A program made the translations under genes and the position numbers. The notes beneath the pieces are model-generated. The model was not told the DNA's origin. It did no database searches and worked only from the letters and a program-made list of their open reading frames with translations. This document shows, piece after piece, positions 30,065 to 59,296 of a DNA stretch of 64,000 nucleotides. Origin of the DNA: Lentinus brumalis (lineage: Eukaryota > Basidiomycota > Agaricomycetes > Polyporales > Polyporaceae); the NCBI GenBank assembly GCA_001792895.1, contig MARA01000049.1, positions 1 through 64,000 of the forward strand, given 5' to 3'. Position 1 is the first letter of the stretch. Each line of letters opens with the position of its first letter.

Positions 30065-30069
30065 TACCG

Positions 30070-32280: not shown

Positions 32281-32590
32281 CCTCTACAGTGAGGGTGGAA
32301 TGAAGTCCGTGGACGAGCGCAAGAACGTGTCCAGCTCGAGGGCGGAGACGGAGAGGACGAAGGGGTAGTGATGCGGGGCCGTTTGAAGAGTATTTCCGTG
32401 TATTAGCCTGAGCGGGAAGTGGTCCGTGCGGTCGCGTGGGATGGTGATCGCTGGGGCGGCCATCACTGCGTTGGGCGCGTCGTCGTTGTCTGCTTTTCTG
32501 CTCTCGCCGTTCGTGCACGCCCGTTTCGCTGTCTCTTCCTAAGTTCCTTCTTCGCGCGGGGTGGGCAGCTCAGTTCCGTTCGCAAGAGCT

Positions 32591-32600
32591 TTTTAAATAA
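32591..32600 (+). promoter_or_regulatory. TATA-like box of the nrd1-like gene
   Basis: TTTTAAATAA about 180 bp upstream of the ATG at 32773, followed by a C/T-rich leader (32690-32760), the usual basidiomycete arrangement for an expressed housekeeping gene. Confidence 0.45.
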
Positions 32601-32772
32601 TACCTCATCGCTCATCGTCCGCACTCGCTCCCTTTTTGTGCGTGTCTTTTTCTGCCCCCACATTCGTTTGCCAGTCGTTCCAGACGCACCCTCCGCCGCA
32701 CCTCCCTCCCTTCGCGCTCTGACCTCCGTTCTCTCTTCTCTCCTACCGTACTCCCCTGCTCTGCCGCTCGCG

Positions 32773-35704
32773 ATGGACGACTCCCAGGCCGCGTTTGCAG
32801 CCCAGTACCAACCCTACGGCAGCTTTGAAATCGATATGATGAAGGTCAGCATCCCCCCGCAGCCCCCCTCTCCCCTTCTCGCCCAGCAGAGCGATATTCA
32901 CCACAGCCCTCCGCCAGCAGAGGTCCATGGAACCCGTCGGCGGCCCCGACGCGAAAAAGGCCCGCTGGTCGCCCACCTCCTTCGGCCCTGGCAACGGGAA
33001 CGGGAACGGGAATGCCAGCGCATCCGGCCTCAACCGCGGCGACGCGTTCGCAAACTACGGCTACGGCCCCCAGGCCGGCCTCGCGCAGCAGAACGGGTTC
33101 AACAACAACTCGCCCTCCGCCGGCTTCAACGGCAACGCGCTCTACTCGACCCCCACCCTCAGCCTCAACACGGCCGTCGCCGCCAACGGCATGTCCCAGC
33201 AGATGAGCCCCAACACCGCCGGCCCGTACACGCCCCAGAGCCAGCAGCCGCAGTCTGCGAACCCCAACTCCGCCAACCCGTACAACGGCTTCAACGGCTA
33301 CAACATGCTGGGCATGGGCTTGCCCGCGATGGGTGTTCTGGGAGGGTTCGCGTACAACGGCCAGATGGCGGCCAACTTTGCTCAGGTGAGTCTCTGTCGC
33401 ACTCTTGTTTCGCTCTGTCGTGGCTTTGGGTTGTCCGCTATCCCCGCTACCGCTACCGCTGCAAGATGTACGCTGCCCCCATCGTCTTGCTGGGGATCAT
33501 GTTCCGCCCTTTTCTGTTCCCTCACACCCCGCATTCCTCTATCTCGCCCTCAGTCCCTCCCCTCGCGCATAGGCTTCTCTCCCTGTCGCGGGACCCGCTC
33601 GGAAAGTGCCCATCCGCTGGAGACCGGATTACGTAAACCGTAGTCTCCAGCAGAAGCATCAGAGAGATTGGCCTCCCGTTGGCTGGGCAGTGGAGCAAAA
33701 GACCGTTGATACACGTTTCCGGCCCTTCGCGACATCAGCGTCTCGATTGCGTTGTGTTCGTGCCTGAGGCCGATGGACGGAGTCGGGGTCACTAGGTCCC
33801 TACGGGGCGGATTCACTCAGCGGGCAGGGAGAAGCCATACTATGTGGACGATGTTCAGCGACAGGGCGCGGGCACAGTCCCAGTGTCGCGGAGGTAGACG
33901 GAGTCCGAGCACTTGATCTCGGCCTTGGCGTACGTACCGTCGAGTGGGCGGCTGCGACGAGTGCTCGCGGCCCTGCAGGCTGCAGCGTGCTCGCGTTGTT
34001 TCGCGACGCCGACTATATGCGCGTTTGTCAGCGAGCGGAGGCTGGTTGCGGCGCCCGTGTCGACCTGGACGCAGTCTTGGTCGCACTGTGTGATGTTTTG
34101 AGATCGTGGACGCTCACCGCTTTTACTCACAGCAATCGTTCAACGGGCAGCGCCTGCCTTCGCTGCAGATCCCCTCGCCGGCTGGTTCTCCGTACTCGCC
34201 CGCTGCGATCACGGCCGCGCTCTCGGCGCAGAACAACCAGACCGCACGCACTGTTTACGTCGGCAACCTTCCTGCGACCGCGTCTGTGGACGAGCTCCTC
34301 AACCTCGTCCACTTCGGCCCTCTGGAGTCGATCCGTGTTCTTCCTGAGAAGTCGTGCGTCTTCTTGTCGTTCTTGGACGGGGCGACAGCGGCGGCGTTCC
34401 ACGCGGATGCGCTCATCAAGAAGCTGTCGCTTCACGGACAGGAGCTCAAGATTGGCTGGGGCAAGCCCTCCCCGGTCCCCAGCCAGGTTGCGCTCGCGAT
34501 CCAGCAGAGCAACGCGAGCCGTAACGTGTACCTCGGAGGTCTCGACGAGGTCACGACGGAGGAGCAACTGCGCGACGATCTGAGCCGCTTCGGCCTTATC
34601 GACCAGGTCAAGATCGTGCGCGACAAGAACATCGGCTTCGTGCACTTCCTGAGCATCTCGACCGCGACAAAGGTCGTCAACACGCTCCCGACGGAGCCCT
34701 CGTGGGCAGGCAAGCGCGTCAACTACGGCAAAGACCGTTGCGCGTACATCCCCAAGTCGCAGCAGGCGGCGGCGCAGGCTGCCCAGGCAGCAGCGGCTCA
34801 GTCGCTGGTTGCACAGTCCGCGGCCCTCTCGCCCATCTCTGGTCACGCCGCGAACCCCTTCGCGTCCCCTCTGTCGCCATACATGCCCTTCTCGCCTGAC
34901 GCGCTCTCGAGCCTCGCAGGCGGCCAAGGCCTCAACCGGACCGTGTACCTCGGTAACATCCACCCGGAGACTACCACAGAGGATCTTTGCAACGCCATTC
35001 GTGGCGGTGTTCTGCAGAGCCTGCGTTATATGCAGGACAAGCACATTGCTGTACGTATATGTATGCATGTGTACCGGATCTTGATCACTGACAGCTTCGT
35101 TCTTCTTGCGCAGTTCGTGACGTTCGTCGATCCTGCTGCGGCGCTCACGTTCTTCCAGGTGGCGTCCTACCAGGGCCTGACGCTGAACAACCGCCGGCTT
35201 AAGATCGGCTGGGGCAAGAACTCGGGCCCGCTGCCGCCTGCGCTCGCGCTGGCCGTGCACTCGGGCGCAACGCGCAACGTGTACGTGGGGAACATCGAGG
35301 ACTTTGACACCTTCACGGAGGAGAAGCTGAAGCGCGACTTTGGCGAGTACGGCGAGATCGAGCTGGTGAACTTCTTGAAGGAGAAGAACTGCGCGTTCGT
35401 GAACTTCACGAACATTGCGAACGCGATCAAGGCGATTGACGGGGTGAAGAACAAGCCGGACTACGCGAACCTGCGCATCGCGCACGGGAAGGACAGGTGC
35501 GCGAACCCGCCGCGGTCCGGGCCGCAGGGCGGATCTGGCGGGCGGAGGGGCGGTGGGGGCGCGAGCTCCCAGCCCCCGAGCGCGATCGAGCCTCCCGAGG
35601 GCGAGAACCCGCTCAAGTCCGCGACGGAGAACGGCATCAAGGATGAGATGAACGAGGTCGCGGACATTCCGATCCCGTCCGGCGAAGTCGAGGCGTCCGC
35701 ATGA
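32773..35704 (+). CDS. nrd1: Four-RRM RNA-binding protein, Nrd1/MRN1-like
   Basis: Exons 32773-32844, 32921-33385, 34133-35050 and 35114-35704 join in frame to 681 aa. The N-terminus (~180 aa) is Asn/Gln/Pro-rich and disordered. Four RRMs follow, each with RNP2-like VY(V/L)G and RNP1-like segments: about 218-292 (VYVGNLP), 309-385 (VYLGGLD, then GKRVNYGKDRCA), 448-520 (VYLGNIH) and 539-615 (VYVGNIEDF, ending RIAHGKDRCA). A Gly/Arg-rich tail follows. The repeated IGWGK and (Y/H)GKDRCA blocks are characteristic of S. pombe Nrd1 and S. cerevisiae MRN1, cytoplasmic regulators of mRNA stability and translation. The second intron (33386-34132, 747 nt) is about fourteen times the local norm. The symbol is by homology only. 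Confidence 0.88.
33386..34132 (+). other. Unusually long intron (747 nt) of the nrd1-like gene
   Basis: Donor GTGAGT after ...FAQ and acceptor CTCACAG before QSFNG are in phase 0, so the exons are secure. The interior has no gene on either strand that I can support. It may hold a regulatory element, an alternative first exon for the RRM part (an ATG at 34106 in frame just upstream of exon 3), or an insertion. Confidence 0.6.
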
Positions 35705-36923
35705 GCTGCACGTAGACATGACATACGATAACCGACAAGATGCGCACACACAACATACCCCCAGCGCACACATTGTAACATCCGGTGGCTGCTTGGATAC
35801 CCCTCCTCTCGTCTGTATATCGTGCTCTCGCCTCCGCCTCTCGATCTGTCCGAACGACGCGTCCCACAATGCTCTGCGACTGTACTACCTCACCTCGATG
35901 CCCACTTCTCAAAACCCCTCCGCGTGCCGGGCAACTCCGTGCTCGTCTATCTGGATCCATCCCCCGCGGGTCGCGTGAGCGAGCGAGTGTCCGCGCGTGG
36001 ACCTTGGGCTATTGGTTGCTCGCTCTTTATCAACTTGGCTTTCGTCCCCCGCGCCTCGTTCTTCCTCCTCCCCCATTCCCCATCCTCCCCATATGCCCCT
36101 TCTTCTCCTTCCCTTTTCGTTGCCTTGAAACGGTCACTACCCCACCCCGGCCCCCCAAACCCCTTTCTTTCGTTTCTCCCGCCTCTTTTTCTTCCTTCGC
36201 GATTACAGCTCTTTCTTCCCGTGCCCGTTACCAAATCTCAGACAGTGTGTGTACGCGGACGCGCACGGGCCTTTAGCGCCCGCCGCGTCCGGCGCCGCTC
36301 GTTGCCTCGTATAACGTACCTCGTACTCTACCTACCCATGGCTCCGTCGCTGTCTGACCGTGTGCACTTATCCCATCCCCATTCCATCCTCCTAGTCTCC
36401 CAGATCTCATGTCTCCCAAGTCTCTGAGTCTCGTTTTCCCCTTGATACCGGTACCATACTCCTCTGTGGCCGTAGTGCGATGCGTTCGATGCGGGTGCTA
36501 TAGCGATGCAGTAATTTTTCCCAATTTGAATCTGCGTGTATCCTCCAAACACACATAGTCTCTACGTCGAAGTAGCAATGGAGTCTCTTTTCCTCTCTAG
36601 AATCTGAAGAATGCGTGTTACGACGTCGGTGATGCCAGACGTGCGCGTCGGCTGCTGGTGCTGCGTGCTGCATGTTGCCGTGCCGATGGCCCCTCGGTGA
36701 GTCTGCCTGTCGCTGTACTTGCGCAGTACGTCTGACTCATTATGCATATGTTCTGTTGTTCAACCAATAGGTCAGGATGCTCTAATACGGTGGTTGAAAA
36801 CATTCTTCGGCAACTTCCGGAATTCGTGTCCTTCGACCAACACTGTGACCCGACCTCGACCTGATACTTCTGACTCTTCAGATCCAGACCTCACAAACAC
36901 TTCTACTGCGCATCATCACCAGA
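35705..36923. other. Spacer with a long pyrimidine-rich tract
   Basis: Includes the nrd1-like 3' UTR. 36040-36240 is dominated by C and T on the + strand, as seen just upstream of strongly expressed fungal genes, but I find no coherent coding region right after it. No gene supported. Confidence 0.4.
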
Positions 36924-37989
36924 ATGCTGAACAAGAGCCGATATCTTGCCAATGCTATATCGTCCCTGAAAGCCAAGCAGGTGCCGCCGCCGGCGACAGT
37001 CATCAGGGGATCTATGCTCGTTGCCCCTGAGGTGCTTCGCAGTATGAGCAGAGCGAACGACTTCAGGAATGATCCACCCATGGCCGACCTTTGCCGGCGC
37101 GTCCGTTTCTGGCAAGAATATGCGAAGGAGCCTTATCATGTGAGCATGCGTTGATAATATCAATCGAACGCAGCAGGGTTCGACTGACGACGCGACTTAG
37201 GGATACAATCCCCAAGTCATTCCAGAATGCGTCTATACGGCAGTAAACCGTATCTTGATGAAGTATCCGGATAGAAGTGTGGGGATAATTCCCCAGTTGG
37301 ACTTCAAGAATGACCTGGACGAGGGGGGTTTCTACGATCCCGAGGTTTCGACACCCTCGCTTGCCGGTTGCAGTCTTCGATATGCGCTGGTACATCATCC
37401 TGACGACGACTGTGAGTAAGGTTCTCGAGATGCAACCGAGTTGCGGAAGCTGACGACCGTTCAGGGACACTTCGCGTACGCATCGGCCTTGTCGATGCAC
37501 TGAAGGAACGCAAAGATCTCACCTGCTGCATCGTCATGGAGGCAGATCCCTGCAGAGGCGGTTATCGCACCTATCGCCCAGCTGTCGCCGCCGCCGCCTC
37601 CGCGCTCATGTCGCGGACTGCGTGAGTGCTTCATTCGTGCGCTAGCTCCTCCTCTCATTGGTCAGGTGCGGCAGACTCACAGAAGTGAGGACGTGCATCA
37701 CGGACGGGAGGTTCTGGATATTCGGTCGCCTCAAAGCGCAGGACGATGGTGTCCGAGTGTACACGGGCATTAGCCCACTGATTTTCGAACCTCCTGCGGA
37801 GGATTACAATGTTCCCACCGGCCCTGACGGGGACAGGACCATGCGATCGCAGCTCGCACTCGTGGTCGGACTGCTAGCAAGCTGGGTGAGTCTCTGGACG
37901 AGATTGTCCTCTGCAATGGCGCGCTGACTGTGTGGTTACAGATTGACGGAGCAGCCCCGTTCATTGGGGTGACCCCAAGGCGGGTTTGA
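36924..37989 (+). CDS. 283-aa member of an uncharacterised paralogous pair
   Basis: Exons 36924-37139, 37201-37411, 37465-37621, 37666-37885 and 37942-37989 join in frame to 283 aa. Shared features with the gene at 38767-40094: FWxxxAK/H followed by an intron, KYPD near residue 95, CC(I/V)(V/I)(M/I)EA, AAAA(S/L)ALMS, LxEVRTC(I/V)TDGxxWxFGRL, and a last micro-exon IDG(A/L)APFIG. Intron positions and phases also agree. The EVRTCITDGRFWIFGRL pattern is reminiscent of the core of PD-(D/E)xK nuclease-like proteins and Crinkler-type N-termini in fungi, but I cannot place catalytic residues. Function unknown. Confidence 0.72.
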
Positions 37990-38766
37990 GGGGAGTTACT
38001 AACCATCTTCACTGCAATCTGCGATTTGTCCCCCATGTAAGACAAGTATGCTAAGGCAGATTCAGACGGTAGTCGCCCAATCCTTGGCGACATCTGTGTC
38101 TCCAACGTCCCTCGACTCTTCGTGTACATGAGCGCATGCCATGCGCTCAGGTACATCGACTTAGGCTTCGGGTGCAGGTGAAGCGCCAGGATCAGTCCGG
38201 CAATTACTGCATCCTGCGCGAGAAACCGGTCCTGGCCTTGCGGTGAATGAGCAGGGACGTCCAAGGATGCCATGCTGAGGGGTTTTCTCGACCCCTTTTT
38301 CTCTCTCTCTTTTCGACAGTGTTGCCGTCGGTGATGGTGCTCGCGTTCGCGTTGTGGTCAATCGGGCATGTGACTCAATGTTGTGTGAATAGTTTGGGAG
38401 TCGTCCGAGCGGGCTCGGATGCGACACGTTCGCTTTTGTTGTCTTCGTCCATGACAAGGGGCGAAGTACGACTGCCATCGATTCGCTATGTTCCGTACAA
38501 GGTGTGCAGGATACAATATTACCTCCTACCGCTATACATGCGCTCGGGTACATCAAGAGTCGAAGGACGTTCGCGACGCGGATGTCGGAGTGGACCAGTG
38601 CTGAGGGATGGGAGTGCACGAGGTGACTGAGTCCGAACAATTCTCTCTACTGTATATCGTGTCATACATTGGGACGGGGCGCAACGCACACTTCGGTCCA
38701 TTTAGTGCCCTATGGTTCGAGATACTTTGAGATACTTTGTATCGTACGTTTGGAGCACTGTAGACC
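37990..38766. other. Spacer between inverted paralogues
   Basis: Lies between two convergent genes. One - strand open frame (38273 to 38033, beginning MASLDVPAHSP) is 80-odd codons without introns or known domain; I do not call it. No other gene supported. Confidence 0.4.
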
Positions 38767-40094
38767 TCAGGAAGAATGGTCACTAGCTTCTTCCCCCAAT
38801 TCCTGTCCGATGAACGGTGCTAATCCGTCGATCTGAACGCCAACGGTGAGCGCGCCATTGCAGACAGTGCCCTCGCTCAAGTGAAGACACTCACCCAACA
38901 TGCCAGCATTTTGGTCACTAGGGACAGACGCCCTCGCATGCTATCGATAGGAGGTGTGAAACGCGGAACGGTACACACGGAAACCGGTTCGAGGTCCATG
39001 TATACCCGGCGGCCGTCCCGCATCACGAGGCGACCAAACATCCAGTCCTCTCCATCGGTTACACACGTCCTCACCTCAGCGAGCCTGTGATACACCAGTG
39101 AGGAACTGAAGAGCAAGCGTGCCGATATCACGCAATGGTGCACTCACGAGGTATGCGACATCAAGGCCAACGCTGCCGCGATCGCATCTGGACGAAAGGA
39201 GAGGACGCCGTGCTTCCGGCCCTCCGCCGCCTCGATTATGATGCAGCAGGAGATATCGTTGCGTTTCTTCATTGCTTTAATTGCGCCGTTTTTGCTCTGG
39301 ATTATCGCGACTAGACGGACGTCAGCATGTGTTACTGCCCGGGGACGGGTCACGGCCCCGGATGCTCGATTGCTACATACCTTGGAGACCAAGCCTGCGG
39401 TCGTTGGGATAATGTAAGACCGCATAGCGAACCTGGCTGATTGTCGGAATGCCCATTCGCTCCCCGTTGGTAATACTGGGCTCGGTGGCGGCTGGAGATT
39501 GGTGTCCATCCGGTCCGCCGAGCTCAAAATGAGGCAGTATGGCGATGTCTTTGTCCGGATACTTCTCCATAATGCGCTTAGCAGCTACGCACAGGCATTC
39601 CGATATGAACTGAGGATTCCACTGTGTGTTCTGGAGGATGAGCTGTGAGTATAGATCCAGGAGTTCGGAAAGGGGCTCCCATAACCACCGTGGCACTCAC
39701 GTCGTAGAACGGCCTCATGTGCTGGTGCCAAAACAGAAAGCGGTCAAGAAGATCAATCATCATGGGATCCTCCCAGAATGCCTGTACGCTTCTCATACTG
39801 TCAAACAGCTCAGCTTCAATGAACATGGGTTCGTCGGAGATTGACTCCGACGACGATAGCTGAATCGTCCGCCTAGGGGAGACAAACAGCTGCGGAATCT
39901 AAAGGGAATGGCTACTTGGTAAATCTTTTTATGATCATGGAGGAGTGACCCACCATTTTCTCGCTCCCACGGGTCGCATCACTTGCGCTGGCGGGAAGAT
40001 TGAGTCCTTGAGCGATTTCGTACATCGCGTGGTCAGGGAACAACTGACGGTAAGCGCGGGTGAGCTCCCTCTGGGATGTGTTCGCTCTCTCCAT
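38767..40094 (-). CDS. 335-aa member of the same uncharacterised pair
   Basis: Exons 40094-39954, 39898-39701, 39630-39381, 39310-39148, 39084-38895 and 38832-38767 join in frame to 335 aa. It carries an extra N-terminal exon (ERANTSQRELTRAYRQLFPDH) absent from the + strand copy, then the same blocks: FWHQHM, MEKYPDKDIAILP, CCIIIEAAEG, AEVRTCVTDGEDWMFGRL and IDGLAPFIG. Intron phases at four shared sites match. Start chosen as the first ATG in the open frame; an upstream short exon at about 40165 is possible. Function unknown; a nuclease-like fold is a weak inference. Confidence 0.72.
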
Positions 40095-40394
40095 TGAACC
40101 GATACCACTACGCTCTTTAAGCTCCTTACGCTCCTTACGACTAGTACCGACATCACGCACCTCATGACCGATATAATCGCATATAATCAGTATACGCTCT
40201 TACCCCATACATACAGGAATCGCGTCGTGAACGCTCACGTTGATGTTGTATGTACCTACTGCATACCGCCCCACCAGCACCATTCGTGATACTACTACTA
40301 GCACAAGAACAGTAGAGTCAGATGAATACTGTTCTGTCCTGTAGAGGCTGTACGCATCCCTGGACCTGGTCGAAGTATCATTTTCAGCGTTCTG

Positions 40395-42620
40395 TCACCT
40401 CAAGGACCGAGTGTGATCGCCATCCGAACAGGGTCGACTTCTGTACCATGGCTCGTTGTAGCGCGGAGCACTAACAATGCGACGAAAATGATTACGCGCG
40501 GGAAGTGTCCCACGGAGTCCAGACCCGCTTTGGCTGTGCTCGTCGGTGTCAAGGTTCGGCGCGGCCTGCAGTTCGAGCTCCAGGTCCAGAGGACCCGACC
40601 GATCTGCAGCCTCTCGGAGTGACTTGCGCGAGTTCAGGCTGGATTTCGAGTTAGACCGTCAGTGCGATACTGCGAGGGGGCTGGACGAGTCGGGTTGCCT
40701 ACACTGCGAGGACGGAATTCGTGTATACTGCGAATGAAATTGGGAGGTCAGCCTGGACGCTCTCAGAACGAGGTACGGGGCGTTACTGACGCCTGACTGC
40801 GACGAACTCGATGGCGATCCATATCATGGTGTTTGGCCTGACGAGAGCCTGGACGCCACCTAGTCAGTTGACACCAAACGCTTGCCCCAGGGTGGGTGAC
40901 GGAGGCTTGCGGAATACTCACGAACACGAGCGCGAGGAAGTTGACGATCCTGCGGAAGACGTGGATGGTTCTCGTCAGCGAGACATACATACGAGCAGAC
41001 TCTCAGGTCGTACCCCGTGAGTAAACCTGATGTGCGTCAGCATCGTCCGCGAGTCGGAGGGAAAGGACACTTGGAGACGCACCGGTGTTGATGGTGTACA
41101 CGATCAGCGAGTTCAGCAGAGTGTTCGTCCTGCACGAGAAGATGTCAGACTGGGGCTCGATGATTATGGGAGGTCGCAACGGGCACCCACTTCTCATATG
41201 CAGTCCGCTGGCGAATGAGGGTCACGATCAGCACGCCGGCGGTCAGAGAGTCGGACAGGATGGCGGCGCCGCATGCCGCGGAGTCGATCCACTGCCGCAC
41301 AGTTCAGAATCACGGGCATGTTGTGAGCGTATTTCCCCGGCGTGCGTCCTTACATAGAAGTGCTCGTACTCGGCGTACGTCTTGTATTTGAACCTGAGGA
41401 CGACTCAGCTTTTTCATCGGGAGGAGTACATGAGGAGCACGCACGCTACCACGCTGCCCGCTATGCGGTGTCAATTCTGCGCGAGGGGGCTCTCGAGGTC
41501 AGTGCGACACTCACCAATAGCGAACCCTGGAGCGGGGTGTCAGGCAACGTCGGATATGCGAACGTGCTATACAGCCACGCACCGAACATGGTAAGCATGA
41601 GGATGACCTGTGCAACGGCAGCTTAGTAGGCTGTCCATCGGCGGTGACGTTGCTTGAGACTTACGGAGACAGCGACGAGAACCCTGTGTTTGCTGCTGAC
41701 TGGTTTTGATGAGAACGATGACGTCTCGGGAGGACAGCGATACAGGATACTTACGGATGTACACGCGGCGCGCGAAGAACCTGGGACGAGTCGAGCAAGG
41801 GATGAGAGCTGGCTCTGTGGCCGCGGATCGTTCAGACGACTCACGACTGGCAGATCATGACTGTGATGCCCTATATTTGCTTCAGAGGCTGGCGGGATCG
41901 CAAAATTGCACTTCCAGTGAATCGCTCACCGCCATCATGGGTTGAACCTTCCCGGTGTTTAAGCGTGAGTGGAGACTCAAACCGCAGGGACTTGCGACTT
42001 TACCTTGATGGACCTAGAATCTCGGCAGGTCAAACATAACAACTGCGGTCATTGGCAGCGCGGCGCACCATATGCCTCGCAGGAGCTCGAGCGGTTGGAA
42101 GTAGTAAGTTACCAGGTAGGTGTAACTGCCGATGATCCTTGTTAGGGACGCACCCTCTACGAAGGCTGGAAGTAAGGGCGCACCATGCGTGTACGATCAC
42201 AATGTTGTGGAAGGTATCCGTGACACTGGGATGGACGATGTTGGTCATGCATGTCCGACGACAAGTGAGATCTGCGGAAGCTCACAGTATGGAGTACACC
42301 TGTGTACCGCAAGTTAGTGAACGAGCAGTCGAGGATGTTCCCGATGACGACAACTTACGAATGCCTTGTTGATCGGCTTGTCGCCGCTATACACGCGGAA
42401 ATATCTGTATGCCTGATGTAATTGAATTCCGTATGAGCTGTGAAAGAGCCGGCAAGTCAGTGCATCATTCGAACAGTACGCTGCCTCGGAGTACACACAT
42501 CAGTCCGACAAAGCCGCCAAGCAGGAGCGCCCCATAAGTGTCGTCCAAGCTCGGGAAGCCGAACACCATCGAGAGTGATCTCGCGCTTCCCGACAGTACG
42601 GGTTCTGGGAGAGCGGCCAT
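40395..42620 (-). CDS. DUF6534-type multi-pass membrane protein (copy 1)
   Basis: Resolved exons include 42620-42499, 42437-42359, 42299-42286, 42225-42184, 42125-42044, 41947-41930, 41870-41845, 41780-41755, 41699-41665, 41607-41583, 41526-41515 or slightly longer, 41393-41354 and further ones to the stop at 40395. Exons are tiny (down to 12-18 nt) and the order of peptides is family-typical: PSLDDTYGALLLGGFVGL, HQAYRYFRVYSGDK, DTFHNIVIVH, YTYLVTYYFQPLELLRGIW, ITVMICQSFFARRVY, KHRVLVAVSVILMLT, WIDSAACGAAILSDSLTAG, LIVYTINTG, and NTMIWIAIEFVAVR. The C-terminal part is the DUF6534 block; about seven membrane spans are expected. No known function; such genes are expanded in Agaricomycetes. Junction near 41515 is unsettled. 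Confidence 0.8.
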
Positions 42621-43261
42621 AGGATCGCCACTTCGCCAGCACCGGCGTGCAGTGGGCTTATATGTTATTACGGGGATGCTTCTCAGGCATATGCATGGAA
42701 CTTGAAGAAGAGCAAGATGTCTATCGGCTAAGGGGGATTCCACACTGATCCCTGTCACCGAGCGGATGCGTCAGACACCCAATTCACCCACATACCACAA
42801 GCATGAGAGTACACTTACCACAGGGAGACCTAGAGCATGCATCATGTCGGAAAATAACATGCACGACAGGACTTCGTGATGTTCTAAATCCCATGATACA
42901 GAGAGCTGTAAGTATCCCATCCTATCTTGATCCTATCCGAAGAGTACGCCAGAAGGACTGGGCGCATCCGCCGCGGTCCTAAGAGTGGCGAGCTACAGTT
43001 CGATGGTCCCAGCACGACCTCAAGGCCCACACATCCATCGGAGATCAAGTGTATGATCCGGCTAGTCTGCTCCTTGTTGACACCTTGTTACCGTGGGTCA
43101 AGCAATCGGAGTTTGTCAGCAGGAATTTGATCTCCGCTAGCGCGTCGAGATCTATACACGGGCGCCTACGCGTCGACGCGTCAACGCGTCGCGCAAGCTG
43201 TTGCGCATCTTCTCTCGTGTTACATCCGCCCTGCCGACACGTAGTCTATGATTGTATCATA

Positions 43262-45479
43262 ATGGATGCTCCACCTAATGAGAGCACACATTCTACCTCC
43301 CCCTCGTTTATCTTCTCCTCTCCTGAAGGCTTCGCTCTCTGCCGCTCTATAATCACTGCACGTCTCGGATACGATCCGCATGACTACCAGCTCGAAGGCA
43401 TCTGCAAGTCCCTCGATGGTATCGACCTCCTCGCAATTACGCCAACTGGATCAGGGAAGACGGGCTTTCTCGTCATGTACCTGCTCGTCATGCACACGCT
43501 CATGCAAACGCCCTCGCGCCGCAAGCTTCCCCCGCATTTCCGCAAGGAGCCCGCTATGATAGTGGTTTGCCCGACCAAGTCATTAGAGCAGGATATGGTA
43601 TGTACTGTGCACCATTGTGCTATAATTCTCTCTAATAGCTGCATAGGAGCCAAGGTTCCGAGGTGCCGGGCTCTCAACGCGGGTGGTCAATGCAGACACC
43701 ACAGACAAGGCGCGACGCAGTCGTGTGGACATCTGGGCGGGTGTCGCTGAGGAAGTCCATGTCCTCCTTCTGGCTCCCGAGCAGCTGCGCAGCAAGGACT
43801 TCGAGAAGCTTGTCAACCGGAAAGACTATCAGCATCGCATTGTCGCGATCGGGCTGGACGAGGCCCATCTGCTCGACACATGGGGGAAGACTTTCCGCAC
43901 TGCATACAAGAGCATTGGCCCATCACGGATGCGCTTCGCCGACACCCCCGTTCTCATCGTTCTCACCGCCACTCTTCGAGAGGGAGCACCCATGAATTCC
44001 GTCTGTGGCTTCCTTGGGATGCCGGCTGGGTCCTTCCACCTCATTCGACGCTCGAACATGCGGTACGACATTCGGCTGCTCTTCCGTACGATCGAGTCTG
44101 CCGCTCGCGGGACGTCCTTCCGGGAGCTAGACTGGGTTCTCAAGGAGAAGCGCAGGGTCATCATGTTCTGCCCAACAATTGCGCTTAGCTTTCGAGTTTC
44201 TCATTACCTATGGAGACAGAGTGCCGGTCTTCCTGACCGTGAGCAGCGTATCCGCATGTACAATGCTCTGAACTGGCCGAGTTATAATGAAGAAACTCTT
44301 GGGTTCATGCACAACGACACTCGATCACGGGTGACCATTGCAACGGACACGCTGTCCGTGGGTATCGATGCCTCTCACGTCGACGACGTTGTCCTCTATG
44401 ACTTCAACATGCCCGTCAACTCGGATGCTGTCTTGCAGAAGGCAGGCCGTATCCGTAACGGCGAAGGAAGAGGATCCCGGGTTGTCGTCTACATACCCCG
44501 GGATGGGCTAGAGCTTGCCCAGAAAGTCCTCGGAATGGCCCCGCCTGGCTCGAGTGCTGGAGGGAGTCAGCGGAAAGTGTCGGCGAAGAAGGTGGTCGAA
44601 GTAGACAAGAGTACTGCGCGGCTCATAGTTGCGCAGTGCAAGGTCGCGGAGATCAACCGTCTATACGCCAACCCGTCGGACGAAGCACCATGTATGTGTG
44701 CCACTTGCAAAGAGCGTCCTCGCCGAGGCCCTCCGGATAGCTGCGACTGTAGTGGCTGCATGCCTGAATTCCCGCCCGAGGTCTCGGGCACCTCCGGCAA
44801 CTCGGACACTTCCCAAGACAACACCACTGCGACAGTACCAGAGATTCCGACAGGCCGACGCTCTCGTGACGAACACATTACCAAGGCCATGCGAACACAC
44901 GCCAAGGTGCGATTGCGCAAGTTCCAGCGGTGGCTGTTCGAGGGCGCAGACGACTGCCTTGATGCTCTCGATACACTCGGGTGTTTCTTCCCTGAAATCC
45001 TCATGGATGTGCTCCTGGACGATCTCTACACCATCTCCAACATTCCTTCGCTCCAAGCAGCTCTTGTCAACTTCAAGAGGCTCGAGGATCATTGGGATGC
45101 ATTGTACAAGATTGTCGAGGAACTGCGAGTCGAGTTTGCGGATATGCGCACAGCGGCTAAGGCTGCGGCTGCGGCCAAAGCGAAGGCGACTCGGGAGAAG
45201 AATCGAGCTCTGGCGGAGGCTGCACAGCGTCGTGCTCAGGTCGCCAATCAAGGGGATACCGAGGATGTGATTATGGTCTCCGCAGAAGGGGCGAGTGGAC
45301 ATGGCAGTGCCACATCGGAGGGCGAGGTTGAGTCGGAGTCAGACTCGGATTCAGATACCCAAGAACGTCTTACTATCCTACTTCCACGGCTCGGTAACTC
45401 CAATGCAGCTGCAGAACCCAGTAAAGGTCGGCTCACAATCCGCCTGCCTGCTCGGACTATCCGTGGACCCTTTCCGTAG
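43262..45479 (+). CDS. RecQ-like ATP-dependent DNA helicase
   Basis: Two exons (43262-43597, 43647-45479; 49-nt intron) give 722 aa. Superfamily-2 motifs: Walker A AITPTGSGKTG in exon 1, DEAH at about residues 183-186 (GLDEAHLLD), LTATLR (motif III), VTIATDTLSVGID (motif V) and QKAGRIRN (motif VI). A Cys cluster (CMCATC then CDCSGC, about residues 460-485) sits where RecQ proteins bind zinc. The C-terminus has an Ala/Lys coiled coil and an acidic Ser/Asp run. It would unwind DNA 3' to 5' using ATP. Such helicases recur in basidiomycetes in many copies; here the context inside a transposon explains that. Start: first ATG of the open frame. All core residues are present. Confidence 0.88.
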
Positions 45480-45549
45480 CTAGTACTCAGTCATAGAACA
45501 ACTTCAATACTACTGCATACTTAGTACTAGCCCGACTTCGCCTATGATA

Positions 45550-48500
45550 CTAGTCAATGTCCATATCTGATTCAAGTCCGCTGTCCGCTATGCCCTCGTC
45601 GGCCGAAGACTCGGACTGGTCAAGCATGTCCGAGAGCGGCTCGCCATTCTCGAGCTCGTTGACAATGAGTTGAGCCTCCATGGTGACGTCAATCTCATCG
45701 ACCAAAAGAGAGCCGTCAACCACGTATGGCATTGACAGAGTCGGATACCGCTGCATCTGAGCAAGTGGGACCCTACCACTGTCCCCATCCCCATCCTCCT
45801 CCCCCTCATCTTCATCCTCAGACTCCGAGTCCGATACAAAGAGATCCCCGAGGGGAGTGGGAAGACTGTCACCGGGCAGCGGAGCACTGGACAGGGGAGA
45901 TTCGGCTTGGAGTGGGTTCGGGGCACCACACTCTGTGTGCTCTAGGCCAGCAAGCATCTCACCCCGTACACTCCGCATGTGGAGCGTCTCTTGCACCCAC
46001 TTGTCCAACTTGCCGTTGCGGAGGTTCGCGACACCTTGGATGTGCTCCATAGGACGCTCGTTCTCGTCTGAATCGGGCGTAAACGTGCGGCCTGGGCGAC
46101 GGCAGTGGACCTCCTGTGTTCGGTACTCTCGGAGTAAGATTGTGAACTCCGGACGCGTGTGCGGCTTTGTATGACGGCTGGGGCGAGCCATGAGGCCAAC
46201 GCTCTCCTTCATATCATTGAGGAGACGAGCGAGATGGTGAAGATTTCGTGAGACGACATTGCGTATGAAGTGAGCGTTGTAGTCAGCACCCTTCCGCTCT
46301 GCGATAGCCTGGAGCAGGCGGTTGAAGTACTCCTGGATGAGATCCACGGGAGAAAAACGGCCGGGCTTGCCTGACAGATTTACGAGGAGGTTACCAAGGA
46401 TCGTCTCCCGCAGCTCGGCACTGGACTCGAGCTCTAGCGTGACGAGTACATATGACGTGTAGCGACAATGCGGTGAACCAGCAAAGGTAAAGATCATCAT
46501 CTAGTAGTAATGTCGTCAAGATGTCAGCTGCAGTTTGCGCATGTGGAGATAATCGGTCTGCACCTTCATTGCTTCGTAAACGCGGCCTACATCGCCCTCG
46601 GCAATAGCGTGGAGGAACTCGCGGCACACCCAAGCGTCACTCATGAACGCGATGGAGTTCGCAAGCACACGATCGCCGGTGAAAGGCTCCTTCGGCGCTG
46701 GCACCTTCTTCTGCCGCGGCTTCCGCTTTTTGCCTGAGCCAGCGGTAGCTGCAGACTCGGAGTGTCTAGGATTGGACGTCTCGCCACCTTGTGGATGGGC
46801 GGATGCGGTTGAAACACTCTCAGGCCGCGTGTCTGAGTTCGACGCACTCCGGTTCGGCACTGCTGGTTCCGAGGTAGACACGGACGACGACGCAGCAGGC
46901 TGAGGGGCAGGAGACGATGGCGAGGCTATGTCACGGAATCTCAGCATGTAGCTATCCATGTATTTGTACCAAAAATAATGCCATACCGTTGGCCGTATCT
47001 GTTGGACTGGAGTGCATATTCACCGGGATCCACGGCGTGCCTTGCGGGACGATCTTCTTCCATGCCGTCACATTGGGATGATCCTCCAAAGAGTCCTCTC
47101 CAGCGCACCCCAGGGCGCGTTCGAATGCTCGCGGTCCTGAGTACGCACGGAAGAGCTTGCGTGTGATGCGCTCGAGCTCTGTGAATGTCGGCAATCTCTT
47201 CGCAGATGCCAGGGAGGCAAAATGCGTGAAGAGGTCGTCGGTGCGGTAGTATGTCCTGCACGCAGTAGTCAGAGGCACGAGTAGACACCCAGAGCATATT
47301 GTGACGCACCTAAAGCAGTCGACGATGTGCGCCTCAAACATCAGGAAGATCGAGTCCGAGGCCTCCTTGAAGTCCGGCTTCTTCAGATTTGAGGGCGGTC
47401 GACGCCCAATCTTTGCAAGGCCATAGCCGAGGGTCGAAGGGTCCTTGGACAGCGCGCTCCCGTAGTATGCAGAGAAGATCCGAGAGAGATCTGCCCATCC
47501 TGTATGCCAAGGTGCAAGGACAGGCTGAACGAGCTCGAAGCTCTCGAAGGGATCGGGATGATGTTGTAAATAGTACTTGATTTGTACGATCTTCTCGTAG
47601 GTCAGTCCATCACCGCCAATGAGAATGAGGCGACGCATGTACGAGTCGCGCCGCTGTCCGCTCTGCTCCATAAAGTCCACGAGCCCGTCCTTCAGTTCTG
47701 TCGTCACGGTCTCGTTCTTCCCACTGGTAGCCAGGGGATGCACCACGGAGGGTGTCGTGGGCAACACTTGCTTCTTGGCACGTGTCCGGAAAGCGTACGA
47801 GACGTCGTCCTTGAGCCCCTCCAGCTCCGGAATGTAGTCGGTAATGACGCGCATCCAGTGAAGCACGCCGACAAGCTCACGGTGCTCCATGTCGATGAAG
47901 CCAAGTAGCTTCTCGACGGTGAGATTCCTCCGCTCGTTCGCTGCAAGTCGGCGGCGTTTGTCGTCGAGATCGAGGGCGGAAATAGGGAAATGAGGGGACT
48001 CGATATACGTGCCTGCGATGCCGATATTGATGTGATTCTCCCGGCCTATTCGGGCGTCGCGTTGCATCATATAGTATTGCACATTGTCGACCACACGAAA
48101 GTCGACGAGGCTCGAGTCTTGCCCGCGCGCCAGGACAACTGCAGCCTCGTGATCCGCAAGCTGTTCCAAGGTGTTGTAGATTGCTGAGTACGATGGCATG
48201 GCGCCGATACGAGAGTTGTACTGGTAGAGGTCGAACGGCGCAGAGAGGGCGAAATGGAGGATTCCTCGAGCTAGCGGCAGGAGATTGGCGCGGTGGGAAC
48301 GCGAAAAGTTGAGTGTGCTGATGACGTTCTGAACAACCTGCAGCAAGAGCGGTGAACGAGGGAAAAATAGAAGCAGGGGAAGCATACCACTGCGGTAGGG
48401 CGGCGCTGACGGGTCCGCGTTCCCGAGTCGGTCCTCGGCTTCTTCCTCGGCGGGCGCTCTGCCACCGCGAGAAGCAGCTTCTCAGTTGTAGGCTGAAGGT

Positions 48501-49371
48501 CCTTGATAACCTGCGCTGTTCGCGTAGCAGCGGCGTACCCGATGTCTGCCCATTCCACCGTAGTGCGCAAGTCCTCGGGGTCGTCTCGCTTCCTCTTGCG
48601 TGATGCGTGCAGCCCGCTTTCGGGCTTGATTGCCTTCTCAGCCTCGTGGACGAGCTTCTTCCGGACTGCCTGGACTGCGAATGATGTCAGCGCAACGCGC
48701 ACCGACCGAGCCTCCCTGTATGGTATCTCCAACGAGTACATATGCTCAGAATCTGACGGATTTCGACCGTCCGGATGCCTCTCCCACAGATGTATGATCA
48801 TAGCAGGTGTAACTTTTGATGTTCCCTTCAGGAATCGCTGCACCATTTGTGCATGGCTGTCCTCCCTATGAACATCTCTACCGAACTCGAATACACGGTA
48901 CAAGAAGTGACCCAAGGTCCAATGTAGTTCATCATGCATGTACTTGAGGATCATACTTAGCTTTTCCTCCTCCTTGTAATAGTTCCGTTTTGGAGGACGC
49001 GTGTCCGACGATCGTCCGAACTGTGGCTGCTGTAGCGGCTGGTTTTCGTTGTGCCTCCATCCGCTATGTGCCGGGCCACGCGTCTGAGGAGTTGGTGTAG
49101 TATGTTGTGAGATAAACGAGGCGTTCCCTGGGGTGTAGGCAAACGTATGCGACGCAGGAAGGTACGGGTAACCGTGTGCAGGAGAAGAAAAGAGATCCGC
49201 AGACGGAGTGGATGGCAGGTCGGCCAAGGTTGGAACCGGTAGAGTGTCGTGACTGGTCGATGCATAGTCGGCAGTGGCAGAGGATCGGAAGCGACCAGTA
49301 TGCTGCTTAACAGGAGATGGTGTCGAGGGTTGTTGCCAGCGAACTTTGAACGGACTACGGCCAGGAGTCAT
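45550..49371 (-). CDS. DUF6589-type protein, candidate transposase
   Basis: Exons 49371-48388, 48337-47310, 47255-46987, 46925-46564 and 46500-45550 join in frame to 1197 aa. The first ~230 residues are Pro/Ser/Thr-rich then helical. The DUF6589-like core follows: VVDNVQYYM (Asp about 412), LIGGDGLTYEKI (Asp about 571), HHPDPFESFELV, WHTGWADLSRIF, DPSTLGYGLAKIGRR and HIVDCFR. After a disordered Ser/Lys linker comes ILGNLLVNLSGKPGRFSPVDL and a strongly acidic tail. Conserved Asp residues in beta-strand contexts are compatible with a DDE nuclease, but that is inference. Being the only other gene in an element with a target duplication, it is the best candidate for the transposase. Confidence 0.8.
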
Positions 49372-49626
49372 GGTAGCGCGTACTGAAGGCCAAGTCGCGA
49401 GTCGCGACGCGCTGAGGGGTGATAGCCACGTGCGCGTGTGATCGAGTCTATCCCTTAACAAGAAGGTTGCCGAGTATGGTATGCCATCACTCGGCTAGTT
49501 CAAAGTCAGCAGAATCGTTGACCTACGGTTTCGGTAGCGCGTCTCATAGCAGACGTTTATATGATCGTCCTATCCCCCCTACATAGATCATATTTTACGT
49601 CTGCCTAGGGGAGACTATGATCCGGC

Positions 49627-54195: not shown

Positions 54196-56426
54196 ATGGC
54201 TACTTTCTCATCGTCGCGGAGCGAAGTCTCCCCTCCGCCTATGCCGGGCTTTCCGAGCTTGAACGACACGTTTGGTGCACTCCTGCTTGGTTGCTTTGCT
54301 GGCCTAATGTGAGTACCCAGTTCCGCATGTCGTCCAAGAGGAACACTCAGACTTGCTGGTATGTCTGCAGCATGTACGGGATCCTGGTGCAACAGGCATA
54401 CCAATACTTTCGTGTGTATAGCGACGACCAGCGGATCAACAAGGTGTTCGCGAGTCACACCTCCTGTTTGGAAGTCCCTTGATCACCAACACATAGGACA
54501 TGATACCTTAGGTCATCTCCATACTGTGAGTTTGGCCGTATCTCAGCGGAAGCCAAAACCAGTCAGTCATGACCAACACTGGCCCAGTGCGATGGACACT
54601 CTCCGTAACATTGTGTTCATGCACCTATGGTACGCCGTTCCTCCCAGTCATCGCACAGTGCGAGCCTTCCGTGACGCATCCGACAGTTATACCTACTTGG
54701 TATCCGACTACTTCAAGCCGCTCGCGCTCCTGCGAGGTATATGGTGCGCCGCTGCCTTTATCAACGGAGCGGTATGCTTGACCTTCCCGATATCGTAGGT
54801 CAATACGGGTACAGTGTCAATTTTCTAGCTCCGTCGCTCGAGGTCTTACACTCAACCCTCGCAGGTTCAAGCCGTCATGAACGTGAGCGAGCCTGAGTCC
54901 AATTGCACGAATTTCTTGCCACCCACTGATCATCTCACAGGCCACAACAGTCCTGATTTGCCAGTCGTGAGTGGTCTGTACTCCCCTGCTCTGCCCGGCT
55001 CTCATTTGTTGGTCGAACCAGGTTCTTTGCTCGCCGAGCATACATTCGTACGTTCCTCGACCCCCCTCATCCTCCCGAGACGCTATAGGTCTTGACACCA
55101 ATCAGTCAGCACCAAACATAGGGTTGCTGTCGCGCTCTCCGTGAGTCTCCATCAAATCTTCATTGAATTATGCCACCCCGTGCGCATACGGTTCACTGAG
55201 CCACCCCCGCGCAGGTTATCCTCATGCTGACCACGTTAGGTGCGTGAAGAAATTTCGTAGCTTCGCGGTGGCCTCACGGCTCACGTCCAAGTCAGGATTC
55301 GCAATAGGTAAGCCTGAAGGAACGTCGGATCTCGTCGACGCCGTTAGCACTGACCACACCTTGACATGTCGTGCTTGAAGCGGGAACTGTGATAGCGTCA
55401 GTCGACCTCACTCAAGGCGTTTTGTTTGTTTTCCGGCAGCTGAAGTACCATTCTCAGGTTCAAGCCTGAGGTCGATACCTTCGCGCTGTACGAGCGTTAT
55501 TATGTAAGCTGCATGCAAGGTGGTACCCGTACGGTAAGGCTGACCATGATTCTGCGACAGTGGATTGACTCCGTGGCACTCGGCACCGCCGTCGCTGCCG
55601 ACTCTGTGACCGCTGGCACCCTCATTGTTTACCTATTTCGTAATCGAACCCGATACGCGAAGTCTGTACCCTTTGCCTATCCCTACATCCTAATCATTGA
55701 GCCCCGGCTCGCCCGTTGCTCCCGCAGGACCAACGCTATACTGTACACCTTGATCTTGTACACTATCAACACAGGCGCGTAGATCAGCATGCTGCCGGTG
55801 TGTCTATTGGACGGTGATGCTGACGCATGCTACCAGGGTTACTCACAGGGTACGAGTTTGGACCCTACAACTACTCCGCATGTTGTTCAAATCTGCTGAC
55901 ACGCTGACACGGCCCGTGGGCCGTTCATGCCACTGTGCAGTATCGTCAACGCCCTTGCAATCGTGCTTGTGAGTATTATGCATCCTGAACAAAGCCTGTG
56001 TTGTTGATATGACCGGGCTGCCACCAGGCTGTCATCATGCCCAACACTATGATATGGATTGCCATCGAGTTCGTCGGTTTTCGCCGTCAGTCCTGTTCTC
56101 TATGTAACCCAGTAGAGAACGTTCATTGACCTCTGCATTGAAGTGTACGCAAACTCGGTTCTGGCAGTGTAAGCATGCTGTTATTCTTGTCCGGTCCATC
56201 GCCGCTGACGTCCTGTCTCTGCAGCCTCAACTCGCGGCGGTCTCTCAGAGAGGCTGCGGATCGGTTGGGCATCAACCGTCCCACGGATCTGGAACTCGGA
56301 GTGCGGTCCGCGCAGAAACCTGACACGGAGGAACGCATCCAAAGCGGGTCTGGCGGGACACCTTCCGTGCGTACAATGTGTCGTCCTTCTGTGCGCTTTG
56401 CTGGTTCTCAGCCCTATTTTGCGTGA
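54196..56426 (+). CDS. DUF6534-type multi-pass membrane protein (copy 2)
   Basis: Follows copy 1 (40395-42620) exon by exon. First exon 54196-54308, second 54371-54449 (79 nt as in copy 1), a 14-nt third exon VISIL, then DTLRNIVFMHL, YTYLVSDYFKPLALLRGIW, TTVLICQSFFARRAYI, KHRVAVALSVILMLT, WIDSVALGTAVAADSVTAG, LILYTINTG, NTMIWIAIEFVGF, YANSVLA and a long last exon to TGA at 56426. Two donors differ: after exon 2 (GCGAGT) and after LYTINT (GCGCGT) the GT of copy 1 is GC, so these would need GC-AG splicing. One short exon near 55310-55440 is not placed. About seven membrane spans; function unknown. Confidence 0.8.
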
Positions 56427-56782
56427 ACTTACAGAAGGCAACGCTCGTCGGATGGCCGTCAGACACAGTCATTGACATCTCCGTCTAACGCCGGAGTAGG
56501 CGGGAGTTACTCCAATGCGCAGAACTAAAAGAGAGTTGAGACTGCGATATATATATGTATTCAGCCGTGTTTTGTCCCGCTTTGTGATATTGCGATTCTT
56601 GCAATGTACATTGAGCGAGCAGTCCGTTCAAGCTTGCAGCGGACAAATACCCACAAGTATCTCCAGCTGTCGTTGCAGTTAAGTACGCTCTACAATCGTA
56701 CATCTATCCATATAGTACATCAGCAACGAACACGAGGCGGAGCGCAGGGAACACATAAGTACCGCTGCGTCACGATAGTACG
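56427..56782. other. Convergent spacer
   Basis: Between stop codons of the DUF6534 gene (+) and the F-box gene (-). No gene supported. Confidence 0.5.
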
Positions 56783-58613
56783 TCACGTCAAACGCGAACG
56801 ACGAGACTCCCGTATACAGTGAAGAACATCTGCCCATTCTTTACTGCCCTGAATCTCTCCAGATCCGCCGTCACCAGACTCGTTGACGTCGAGGTTGGGG
56901 AAGAGCGTATCCATGAACATGCAAAAGGCCAGAAACTCCTCCGCCTCGCCAAGGTCGTTCCATAGGCTGCGTACTCGGATACTCCTCAGGGTCTGGCAGC
57001 ATGGCAGACTCTTCTCGTTCCGAGTCTCGGAAAAGGTCTTGGAGGACAGGTTAAGTGAATGAAATTGCACGGTTTTCAACTTCGCGCCAGAACGGGCGAG
57101 ACTGAGCAAGGCGGGAATACCGAGCCCCAGTGCACGATCAAAGAAGTGCGGCTGCTTCAGAGATAGGCTCGTCAGCTGTGGCCACGCCTCTGCCATTGCG
57201 GCGACGTCGGCGTCGCTCATGATAAACTTCGAATGACGGAGGTCAAATGATGCCACCTCGATGTTGGGTAGCTCGAAGAGTGGCTGAACGGCGGCACTGG
57301 GCATATCGTCACTGCGGGGCGTGCCAGGAGAGAATGGACGAAAGTCGATATGGATCGCGATTATGCTCGAAAACTGAGATGCGATGGTTTCGCAGATCCG
57401 CCGCCAGGCGGATTCTTTCAAGCGTGTCTTGTGAACGACAGTGAGCGAACGGAGGTTCGGTGCCTTGAATGCCCTGTAGACCTCTTCCCTGCCCGAGTGG
57501 TCGGCGATCGTGAGGGCCCTCAGGTTGCGATGTTCCTCCATGACCCTCAACTCCGAGGAGCGATACGCGGGCAACTGTGAGTACACGACGGCGAGCTTGA
57601 GGTCTTGAAGGTCCTCCAGCTCCGCGAACTTGTGCTCCCAGATGACCTCGTGATCCAGAGCGCACTCGGGGTTGTCACGCTCCAGCTCGAGGACGCGGAG
57701 AGCGACGCCGTGTCGCTTGCAATCTGCGACGATGGACTGGATATACTGTACTGGGACATTCTTGGAGGAGATTGTGAGGTGCGTGAGGAGAGGCGTGAGC
57801 TTGATCACAGAGCGGAAGAGGAGAGGGATGCTCATGGACCACTCCTCTTCAGGGAATGTCATTATCGTGCGGAAGCCGAGGTGCAGACGCCGCAGGCTGG
57901 GCGCCACAAGCCAGAGGAGTTCGGTGCTCGACGGGTCGTCGATCTCCCATTCGAGATACCGTATGCCGGGGAGGAGGGGTTGGTACGCGTTCTGACGCAT
58001 CAGGTACGCCCATATGGAAGATGAGATGGCGGTATAGTCATCGAGCTCCTCTTCTTCCGAGTCATCACCATCGTTATCTTCAGAGTCGGAGTCTTCATCG
58101 CCGCGGTCCTGATGATCGTAGCCGCAGTCCTCGCCCTCCTTTGACACTTCATTGACAGGAGCAGAAGGCGCAGCGAGAATTCGGACTGAGGACGCATGTC
58201 GACGAAAGCGCTCCCACTCTTGGGCATCAATCTCGTTGTTGAGTACCTAGGATGGTGAACGCCAGTTAGTCATCTAGATCTAGGTCGATAGCGAGTACAA
58301 GTCATCTTGCTTCAATCAGGGCACTCACATATGTGGGGTACTGCCTATCAATGTCCTGGTCTTCACGGCCCTCACGGATGAGGAACAGAGAGGATGGCAA
58401 TAGCTCGAGTAAAGGGAGTATATCCCCAATCTCAGCCCACAAGACTCGCGCTGCTGGATCCTCGAAGGCCTTGCATACTCTGGTGCACTGCGCCAGCTCG
58501 GTGCGTTGCCGACTCGTGCCCTCTGGCGACAGAACTTCCTTCAGAGCCTCGAAGATACGAAGTAGGATGTCGGCATTGCAAAGAACGGACTGCGAGGTGC
58601 TGGAGGAGGTCAT
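56783..58613 (-). CDS. F-box/LRR-like protein, intact
   Basis: Two exons, 58613-58329 and 58246-56783 (82-nt intron, phase 0), give 582 aa. The N-terminal F-box reads LCNADILLRIFEALKEVL, CTRVCKAFEDPAARVLWAEI and LLPLLELLP, a textbook basidiomycete form. Exon 2 opens with AQEWERFRRHASSVRIL, then a strongly acidic insert (about residues 125-155, DEDSDSEDNDGDDSEEEELDD), followed by irregular LRR-like segments (SLRRLHLGF, LLTHLTISS, NLRALTIADH, NLRSLTVVH, QLTSLSLKQ). Expected role: substrate adaptor of an SCF ubiquitin ligase. Same family as 26277-27880, but without its frame break. Confidence 0.88.
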
Positions 58614-59296
58614 GGAGCACTCGGAAAATCTCTGAGTCAAGACTCCGTGGCAACGCGGGCGTACTGCGCCGTATGTAAGCGCCGGGATCCTTAGCTTGTT
58701 TTCCCTCCTCCTCCTCCTCCTCACCTACAGAAATAACTACCTGCTTCAGTGCTCACGTGCACGGACTTGCGACGCCACCGTACTTCTCCGGCGCACCGGC
58801 GCGCCACCGTAGCGAGCGGACGAGGGGAGCTCGTAGGATACGCTATGCCTGATATGGCAATTCCCGACCGCCTTGCCGTCTCTTGCCAGTTCAAACCACT
58901 CGGATTCTAGACTTGAAGGACAGATCTGCTAAAGTATCTATCTGGTTAACCGGTAAAACCAGATTTAGGAAACTATCATCTAATGAGATCAGAGGGCTGG
59001 TTTCCAGGCCAGGACTCCTCGCTTAAGGACGAGAGGTAAGTACTTAAATGAACTTGCATGTTCGCGGATGACATCTGCTCCTCCTCCTTCATGTTATATC
59101 ACAACTGGATACACTAGAGTCAGAACTTTGCGAGATTGTACTGCACAGAATTTCATTATTCGTACCTGTCTCCTCCGCTCTAGAAGATCGGAAGTAATGC
59201 TACGCGTACTTCCGTCGTCACCGAGGAAGGTGAGCCAATGATAATGGAGGATTGACTCTGTAAGATGGAAGAGATGATCGGCGGGCCGCGTGAGCT
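58614..59296. other. Spacer, no gene seen
   Basis: Promoter side of the F-box gene, with a GAGGAGGAG-type purine tract on - (58705-58730) and AT-richer sequence near 58930-59050. No coding region supported. Confidence 0.45.

What the first reader, a model, noticed from the sequence alone, without database searches (positions are those of the whole stretch)
43054..49626. RecQ-like helicase + DUF6589 form a transposon with a 9-bp target duplication
Exact TGATCCGGC repeats abut inverted TAGTCT/AGACTA and enclose only these two complete, tail-to-tail genes. This explains why both families are multi-copy in basidiomycete genomes and nominates DUF6589 as the transposase with a RecQ-type helicase partner, a gene pairing I do not know from any named superfamily.
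Basis: partly seen in the sequence, partly recalled or inferred. Interest (0 to 1): 0.9.

Follow-up and report, generated by a model that had tools for sequence, protein, structure and literature searches.

The report
Mushroom AcademH-type transposon with DUF6589 transposase
A 6.6-kb stretch of this fungal genome, holding a RecQ-like helicase gene and a gene of unknown function (DUF6589), is a jumping gene flanked by a 9-base duplication; DUF6589 is predicted to be the enzyme that moves it, so the element likely belongs to the already named AcademH group, and a protein family without a function would gain one.

Summary
The element is 43063-49617 (6,555 bp) between exact 9-bp repeats TGATCCGGC. 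Both genes are intact after splicing: a RecQ-like helicase (722 aa) and a DUF6589 protein (1,197 aa), tail to tail. I could bound 11 of the genome's 13 DUF6589 loci found by Pfam; all 11 are helicase + DUF6589 pairs with exact 9-bp duplications and inverted termini. So are 17 of 18 short copies; the eighteenth matches 8 of 9. DUF6589 is predicted to fold like DDE transposases (Hermes, P element, RAG1), and a D-D-E triad is conserved in 11 of 11 pairs. Helicase and DUF6589 diverge together and share a contig in other mushrooms. The claim of a pairing unknown from any named superfamily fails: published passages describe a RecQ helicase in Academ, and AcademH with 9-10 bp duplications in Basidiomycota. 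Most likely this is a new AcademH family. New here, as far as I could search, are DUF6589 as its transposase and an asymmetric right-end hairpin. Right-end-only remnants of 31-62 bp inside exact 9-bp duplications also occur (8 of 17 further right-end sites read), likely scars of aberrant excision. Direct comparison with Academ transposases was not possible.

The parts
43054..43062 (+). left copy of the 9-bp target-site duplication TGATCCGGC
43063..43182 (+). left end of the element, TAGTCTGC..., partly shared with 20 other places in the genome
   Evidence: (20 other places; 9 of them match to the terminus), ends shown
43262..45479 (+). RecQ-like helicase gene, exons 43262-43597 and 43647-45479, 722 aa
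   Evidence: gene model; Pfam DEAD/Helicase_C; RecQ best by sequence
45550..49371 (-). DUF6589 gene, exons 49371-48388, 48337-47310, 47255-46987, 46925-46564, 46500-45550; 1,197 aa; predicted DDE transposase
   Evidence: gene model; PF20231; fold of a 55%-identical relative
48086..48088 (-). codon of D412, predicted first catalytic Asp (DNVQYY)
   Evidence: role inferred
47609..47611 (-). codon of D571, predicted second catalytic Asp (GGDGLT)
   Evidence: role inferred
46330..46332 (-). codon of E938, predicted catalytic Glu (LIQEYFN)
   Evidence: role inferred
49549..49604 (+). right-end hairpin: GCAGACG (49549-49555) can pair with CGTCTGC (49598-49604); GCAGAC is an inverted copy of the left-end GTCTGC
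   Evidence: folding predicted
49603..49617 (+). right terminus GCCTAGGGGAGACTA; the 15-mer GCCTAGGGGAGACWA occurs 83 times in the genome
49618..49626 (+). right copy of the target-site duplication TGATCCGGC
39871..39885 (+). a second right-end motif GCCTAGGGGAGACAA, without a left end or a clear duplication

Best explanation
Window 43063-49617 is a complete DNA transposon flanked by a 9-bp target duplication; its DUF6589 gene is predicted to encode the DDE transposase that cuts and joins its ends, its RecQ-like helicase likely helps to unwind or repair the DNA during the move, and it most likely belongs to the AcademH lineage of the Academ superfamily. Shown: boundaries, duplications, gene content, copies, co-divergence of the two genes and conserved D, D and E. 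Inferred: that the triad is catalytic, that the strand-transfer points lie 9 bp apart, what the helicase does, and the AcademH filing. Autonomous copies would also move the short copies that keep only the two ends.
Confidence: 0.87

Rival explanations
1. A DNA transposon of a superfamily separate from Academ, with DUF6589 as a new transposase type that acquired a RecQ helicase independently.
For: No Academ sequence could be compared; RecQ helicases occur in more than one superfamily (KolobokH); Pfam reports nothing but DUF6589 for the three proteins scanned even at E 10.
Against: Helicase type, 9-bp duplication and host group all fit what papers say of AcademH. In the listings of ten literature searches I saw no competing named superfamily with this set.
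Confidence: 0.1
2. A Mutator-like (MULE) element with a captured helicase, since MULEs also make duplications of about 9 bp (recalled; PMC10045372 gives 4-10 bp for MuDR and IS256).
For: 9-bp duplication; the fold neighbours include ISCth4, which I recall as an IS256-family transposase.
Against: No MULE Pfam domain in the DUF6589 proteins scanned at E up to 10. A helicase is present in all 11 bounded pairs across divergent groups, so it is no recent capture.
Confidence: 0.02
3. Two host genes that happen to be neighbours and were spread by segmental duplication (for example subtelomeric RecQ genes).
For: Fungi do carry repeated subtelomeric RecQ genes (PMC4522978).
Against: Among the flanks of 28 insertions compared, the only match is a 27-bp one between the two flanks of C24; each insertion has its own 9-bp duplication; one element lies inside another.
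Confidence: 0.01

Closest known systems
AcademH lineage of the Academ superfamily (Kojima 2020, Mob DNA 11:15; paper not held, known here only through papers that cite it)
   Same: Helicase gene of RecQ type, 9-bp duplications (9 or 10 reported, PMC10045372), occurrence in Basidiomycota, transposase of DDE type (predicted here).
   Different: Transposase homology untested here. In the C81/C44/C43 group the perfect terminal inverted repeat is at most 6 bp, the right end is a predicted hairpin, and right-end-only remnants are common; I could not check whether AcademH was reported with these.
KolobokH
   Same: DDE transposase plus RecQ helicase, in fungi (PMC9587614).
   Different: Kolobok inserts at TTAA (recalled); here 9-bp duplications of varied sequence.
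hAT, P and RAG1/Transib transposases
   Same: Predicted RNase H fold with a large helical insertion between the second Asp and the Glu.
   Different: No similarity by sequence to any solved structure up to E 1; duplication length differs (8 bp for hAT and P, 5 bp for Transib, recalled).
Helitron
   Same: A transposon with a helicase and a hairpin near one end.
   Different: Helitrons leave no target duplication (recalled) and use an HUH nuclease (PMC12730594); here 9-bp duplications and a predicted DDE fold.

Membership tests
AcademH | encodes a RecQ-type helicase | tested here: met
   PDB RecQ E 1e-13; NCBIfam recQ E 2e-20, below the curated cut-off
AcademH | 9- or 10-bp target-site duplication (PMC10045372) | tested here: met
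   28 of 29 two-ended insertions exact 9 bp, one 8 of 9
AcademH | transposase of the RNase H/DDE type | tested here: met
   predicted model and fold neighbours, conserved D-D-E; active-site geometry not measured
AcademH | transposase groups with Academ transposases in a tree | not testable with these tools
   no Academ sequence held; source paper not held
AcademH | found in Basidiomycota | tested here: met
   named relatives in the rows listed are nearly all mushroom-forming fungi (the last rows are ordinary RecQ of a yeast and bacteria)
MULE | MULE transposase domain (PF10551, as named in PMC8290104) | tested here: not met
   only DUF6589 reported at E up to 10 for P0002 and two window exons
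KolobokH | TTAA duplication (recalled) | tested here: not met
   9-bp duplications of varied sequence
Helitron | no target duplication (recalled) | tested here: not met
   exact 9-bp duplications
subtelomeric RecQ genes | tied to chromosome ends | tested here: inconclusive
   copies lie inside contigs, but contig ends were not tested for telomeres

The most novel reading that the evidence does not exclude
An AcademH subgroup with asymmetric ends that leaves its right end behind. The right end is a hairpin whose outer arm, GCAGAC, is an inverted copy of the left-end GTCTGC and so mimics a left end. The transposase cuts at the true left end and at this internal false end, releases the body, and leaves a 31-62-bp right-end scar inside the old 9-bp duplication. 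Extrapolated from the sites read, such scars would outnumber the two-ended copies that carry the same right terminus and would record past jumps. A rival for the same data: the remnants are tiny elements that insert by themselves.
Probability: 0.4. Interest if true: 0.72.

Novelty: new variant of a known kind. Interest (0 to 1): 0.6.

Why it matters
Pfam family DUF6589 has no function on record in the library searched (0 papers name it). Calling it the transposase of AcademH-like elements would reclassify a large mushroom protein family, now annotated as hypothetical proteins, as mobile DNA, and would name residues for test. The Pfam model starts at residue 145 of P0002, after the first predicted catalytic Asp (residue 95), which may be why the fold went unseen. 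If the right-end scars are confirmed, they would make excision history readable in a single genome and give a handle on why some DDE transposons carry a RecQ helicase.

Tried and rejected
Chance pairing of a 9-mer: rejected by the copies and the control. Empty site in the same genome: none for the C81 flanks; the other insertions were not tested. The left-end pattern was badly designed (3 hits against 5 in the control) and is not used. C51 was set aside: its left end is clear, but the second GCTGTCTGA is not preceded by the right terminus; the script still counted it, giving 27 of 28 exact. Idea that remnant lengths step by one helical turn (note): dropped, because L101 (50 bp) starts at the same sequence point as the 42-bp remnants. 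Not listed by the fold search and therefore not excluded: other transposase families. No Rfam family at gathering score and no tRNA in the window.

Papers: passages only of PMC4522978, PMC10799480, PMC10045372, PMC9587614, PMC8290104, PMC12210899, PMC7805219, PMC10294476, PMC3627910 and PMC6416283; outline, abstract and passages of PMC12730594; PMC9674265 searched by term with no hit; other titles only in search listings. Kojima 2020 (AcademH) and Muszewska 2017 were not seen. Duplication lengths of MULE, Kolobok, hAT, P, Transib and Helitron are recalled unless a call is cited.

Full report
Observation. TGATCCGGC occurs exactly twice in the window, at 43054-43062 and 49618-49626, next to TAGTCT and AGACTA. 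Two such 9-mers are not rare by themselves (24 of 100 shuffles). What makes them meaningful is the rest of the genome, which is held as G000 (53.4 Mb, 136 contigs). A search with the left end found 20 other places: 9 of those matches run to the terminus (they start at 43059-43063, five exactly at 43063) and 11 begin about 42 bp inside it. A search with the right end found 6 other places, 5 of which stop exactly at 49617. The element is therefore 43063-49617 (6,555 bp).

Gene content. The helicase gene runs 43262-45479 on the plus strand with one 49-bp intron; the DUF6589 gene runs 49371-45550 on the minus strand with four introns of 50-63 bp. Both read through without internal stops. They are tail to tail. 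The helicase matches RecQ best (PDB E 1e-13; NCBIfam recQ E 2e-20, below that model's curated cut-off). The other protein matches only PF20231, DUF6589.

All pairs in the genome. The Pfam model finds 21 matches that fall into 13 loci, and helicase relatives lie beside most of them. I could bound 11 of the 13. All 11 have exact 9-bp duplications and inverted termini: C81, C44, C43, C53, C64, C24-inner, C35, C2 and C126, C24-outer and C115. The termini form groups: TAGTCTGC or TAGTCTTG (C81, C44, C43), TAGTCTCG or TAATCTCG with inverted repeats alike in 18-20 of 20 bases (C53, C64, C115), CAGGCTCC (C2, C126, C24-outer), TAGGTTCG (C24-inner) and TAGGCTCG (C35). Ten of the 11 are tail to tail; C35 is head to head. 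The two remaining loci, on C63, are 99.9% identical inverted copies of a shortened DUF6589 gene; their surroundings could not be fetched. As a control, a search for exact 9-bp repeats 5-8 kb apart with inner ends alike in at least 8 of 12 bases and the terminal motif gave 0 hits in window 1-42500 and 0 in 30 shuffled 11-kb pieces; without the motif it gave 4 and 9. Eight of the 11 pairs meet exactly these criteria. C44 does not (7 of 12; it was found by the repeat beside its terminus), and C24-outer (12.8 kb) and C115 (21.3 kb) are longer because other elements lie inside them.

Short copies. Eighteen copies of 674-1,434 bp have both ends. Seventeen have exact 9-bp duplications and one (L021) has 8 of 9. 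The 28 left duplications tabulated, including that of C51, which I later set aside, all differ. Flanks are unrelated apart from one 27-bp match between the two flanks of C24. Some short copies are 97-98% identical to each other, so they likely spread not long ago. L007 keeps part of a helicase gene.

One mobile unit. Similarity matrices of the helicase halves and the DUF6589 halves of the 11 elements agree (Spearman 0.59; 2 of 10,000 permutations as high), and the terminal types follow the same groups. Two pairs have consecutive gene numbers: Trametes cinnabarina scf185013.g159 and g160, and Trametes versicolor VTO73DRAFT_4265 and 4264. Duplications in those species could not be read.

Known or new. 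The library holds no paper naming DUF6589. It does hold passages saying that Academ carries a RecQ helicase (PMC3627910), that fungal Academ copies carry DEAD/recQ_fam domains and are often annotated as host genes (PMC6416283), that AcademH makes 9- or 10-bp duplications (PMC10045372), and that AcademH is a low-copy element of Basidiomycota and other fungi (PMC10799480). The pairing is therefore known, and AcademH is the best filing. What I could not do is compare DUF6589 with an Academ transposase, since no such sequence and not the defining paper were on hand.

Mechanism. Best reading: DUF6589 binds and cuts both ends and joins them to target DNA at points 9 bp apart (inferred from the duplications). 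The helicase likely opens or repairs the DNA; PMC10045372 links the duplication length of AcademH to its helicase. Autonomous copies would also move the short ones.

Unexpected right ends. In the C81/C44/C43 group the right end is a predicted hairpin: GCAGACG, a loop region with an inner stem, and CGTCTGC, followed by CTAGGGGAGACWA or close variants. GCAGAC lies 42-63 bp from the right terminus in all 21 two-ended elements of this group listed (3 autonomous, 18 short), against 13 of 525 control pieces; the six other autonomous elements in that list lack it. The terminal 15-mer GCCTAGGGGAGACWA occurs 83 times in the genome and 0 times reversed. Sixteen of the 83 belong to two-ended copies by their positions. 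Of the other 67, I read 17 (L013 and L014, 14 new ones, and one in the window). Eight are right-end-only remnants of 31-62 bp inside an exact 9-bp duplication, two match 8 of 9, and seven have 7 of 9 or fewer within about 80 bp; some of these seven may be longer copies. At random positions an exact repeat at that distance occurs in 19 of 5,000 and 8 of 9 or better in 125 of 5,000. Taking 8 of 17 for the 67 would give about 30 remnants, against 16 two-ended copies with this terminus. L015, whose end differs by one base from the 15-mer, also matches 8 of 9. Of the 11 remnants with 8 or 9 of 9, six start exactly after the position of the internal GCAGAC of their parent group (L013, L090, L093, L094, L095, L101), one is off by one base, two are shortened by 6-8 bp, and two have no parent that I read. 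By contrast, 12 of 12 left ends found with a 17-base pattern have a right end at the expected distance, 11 of them read and one (C46) by position only. This asymmetry suggests that the transposase sometimes cuts at the internal false left end and leaves the right end as a scar. That tiny right-end elements insert by themselves is not excluded.

Verdict.

Noticed in passing
G000 genome-wide; L013, L088, L090, L093, L095, L097, L099, L101: Right-end-only remnants of 31-62 bp flanked by exact 9-bp duplications and lacking any left end (8 of 17 sites read); 83 copies of the terminal 15-mer in the genome.
   Followed up: partly
window 39871-39885: A second copy of the right-end motif GCCTAGGGGAGACAA with no left end in 30000-43000 and no clear duplication.
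   Followed up: partly
G000 C24:313139-325966: One helicase + DUF6589 element (318880-325787) is nested inside another (duplication ATAAGTACC), near its right-hand end.
   Followed up: yes
G000 C115:994221-1015562: Element whose helicase gene is split by an insertion of about 15 kb; a repeated stretch on both sides suggests an LTR retrotransposon.
   Followed up: partly
G000 C63:27290-31000 and 55489-59196: Shortened DUF6589 gene in two 99.9% identical inverted copies about 25 kb apart; bounds not determined.
   Followed up: no
G000 C35:842484-849840: The only bounded pair with head-to-head genes; its termini are imperfect inverted repeats.
   Followed up: no
Pfam PF20231: The model begins after the first predicted catalytic Asp (residue 145 against 95 in P0002), so it cuts through the predicted RNase H fold.
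   Followed up: yes
window 18196-20080 and 23964-25779: Two coding-length tandem arrays, 258-bp unit x 7.3 and 237-bp unit x 7.7, 96-99% alike, inside long open frames.
   Followed up: no
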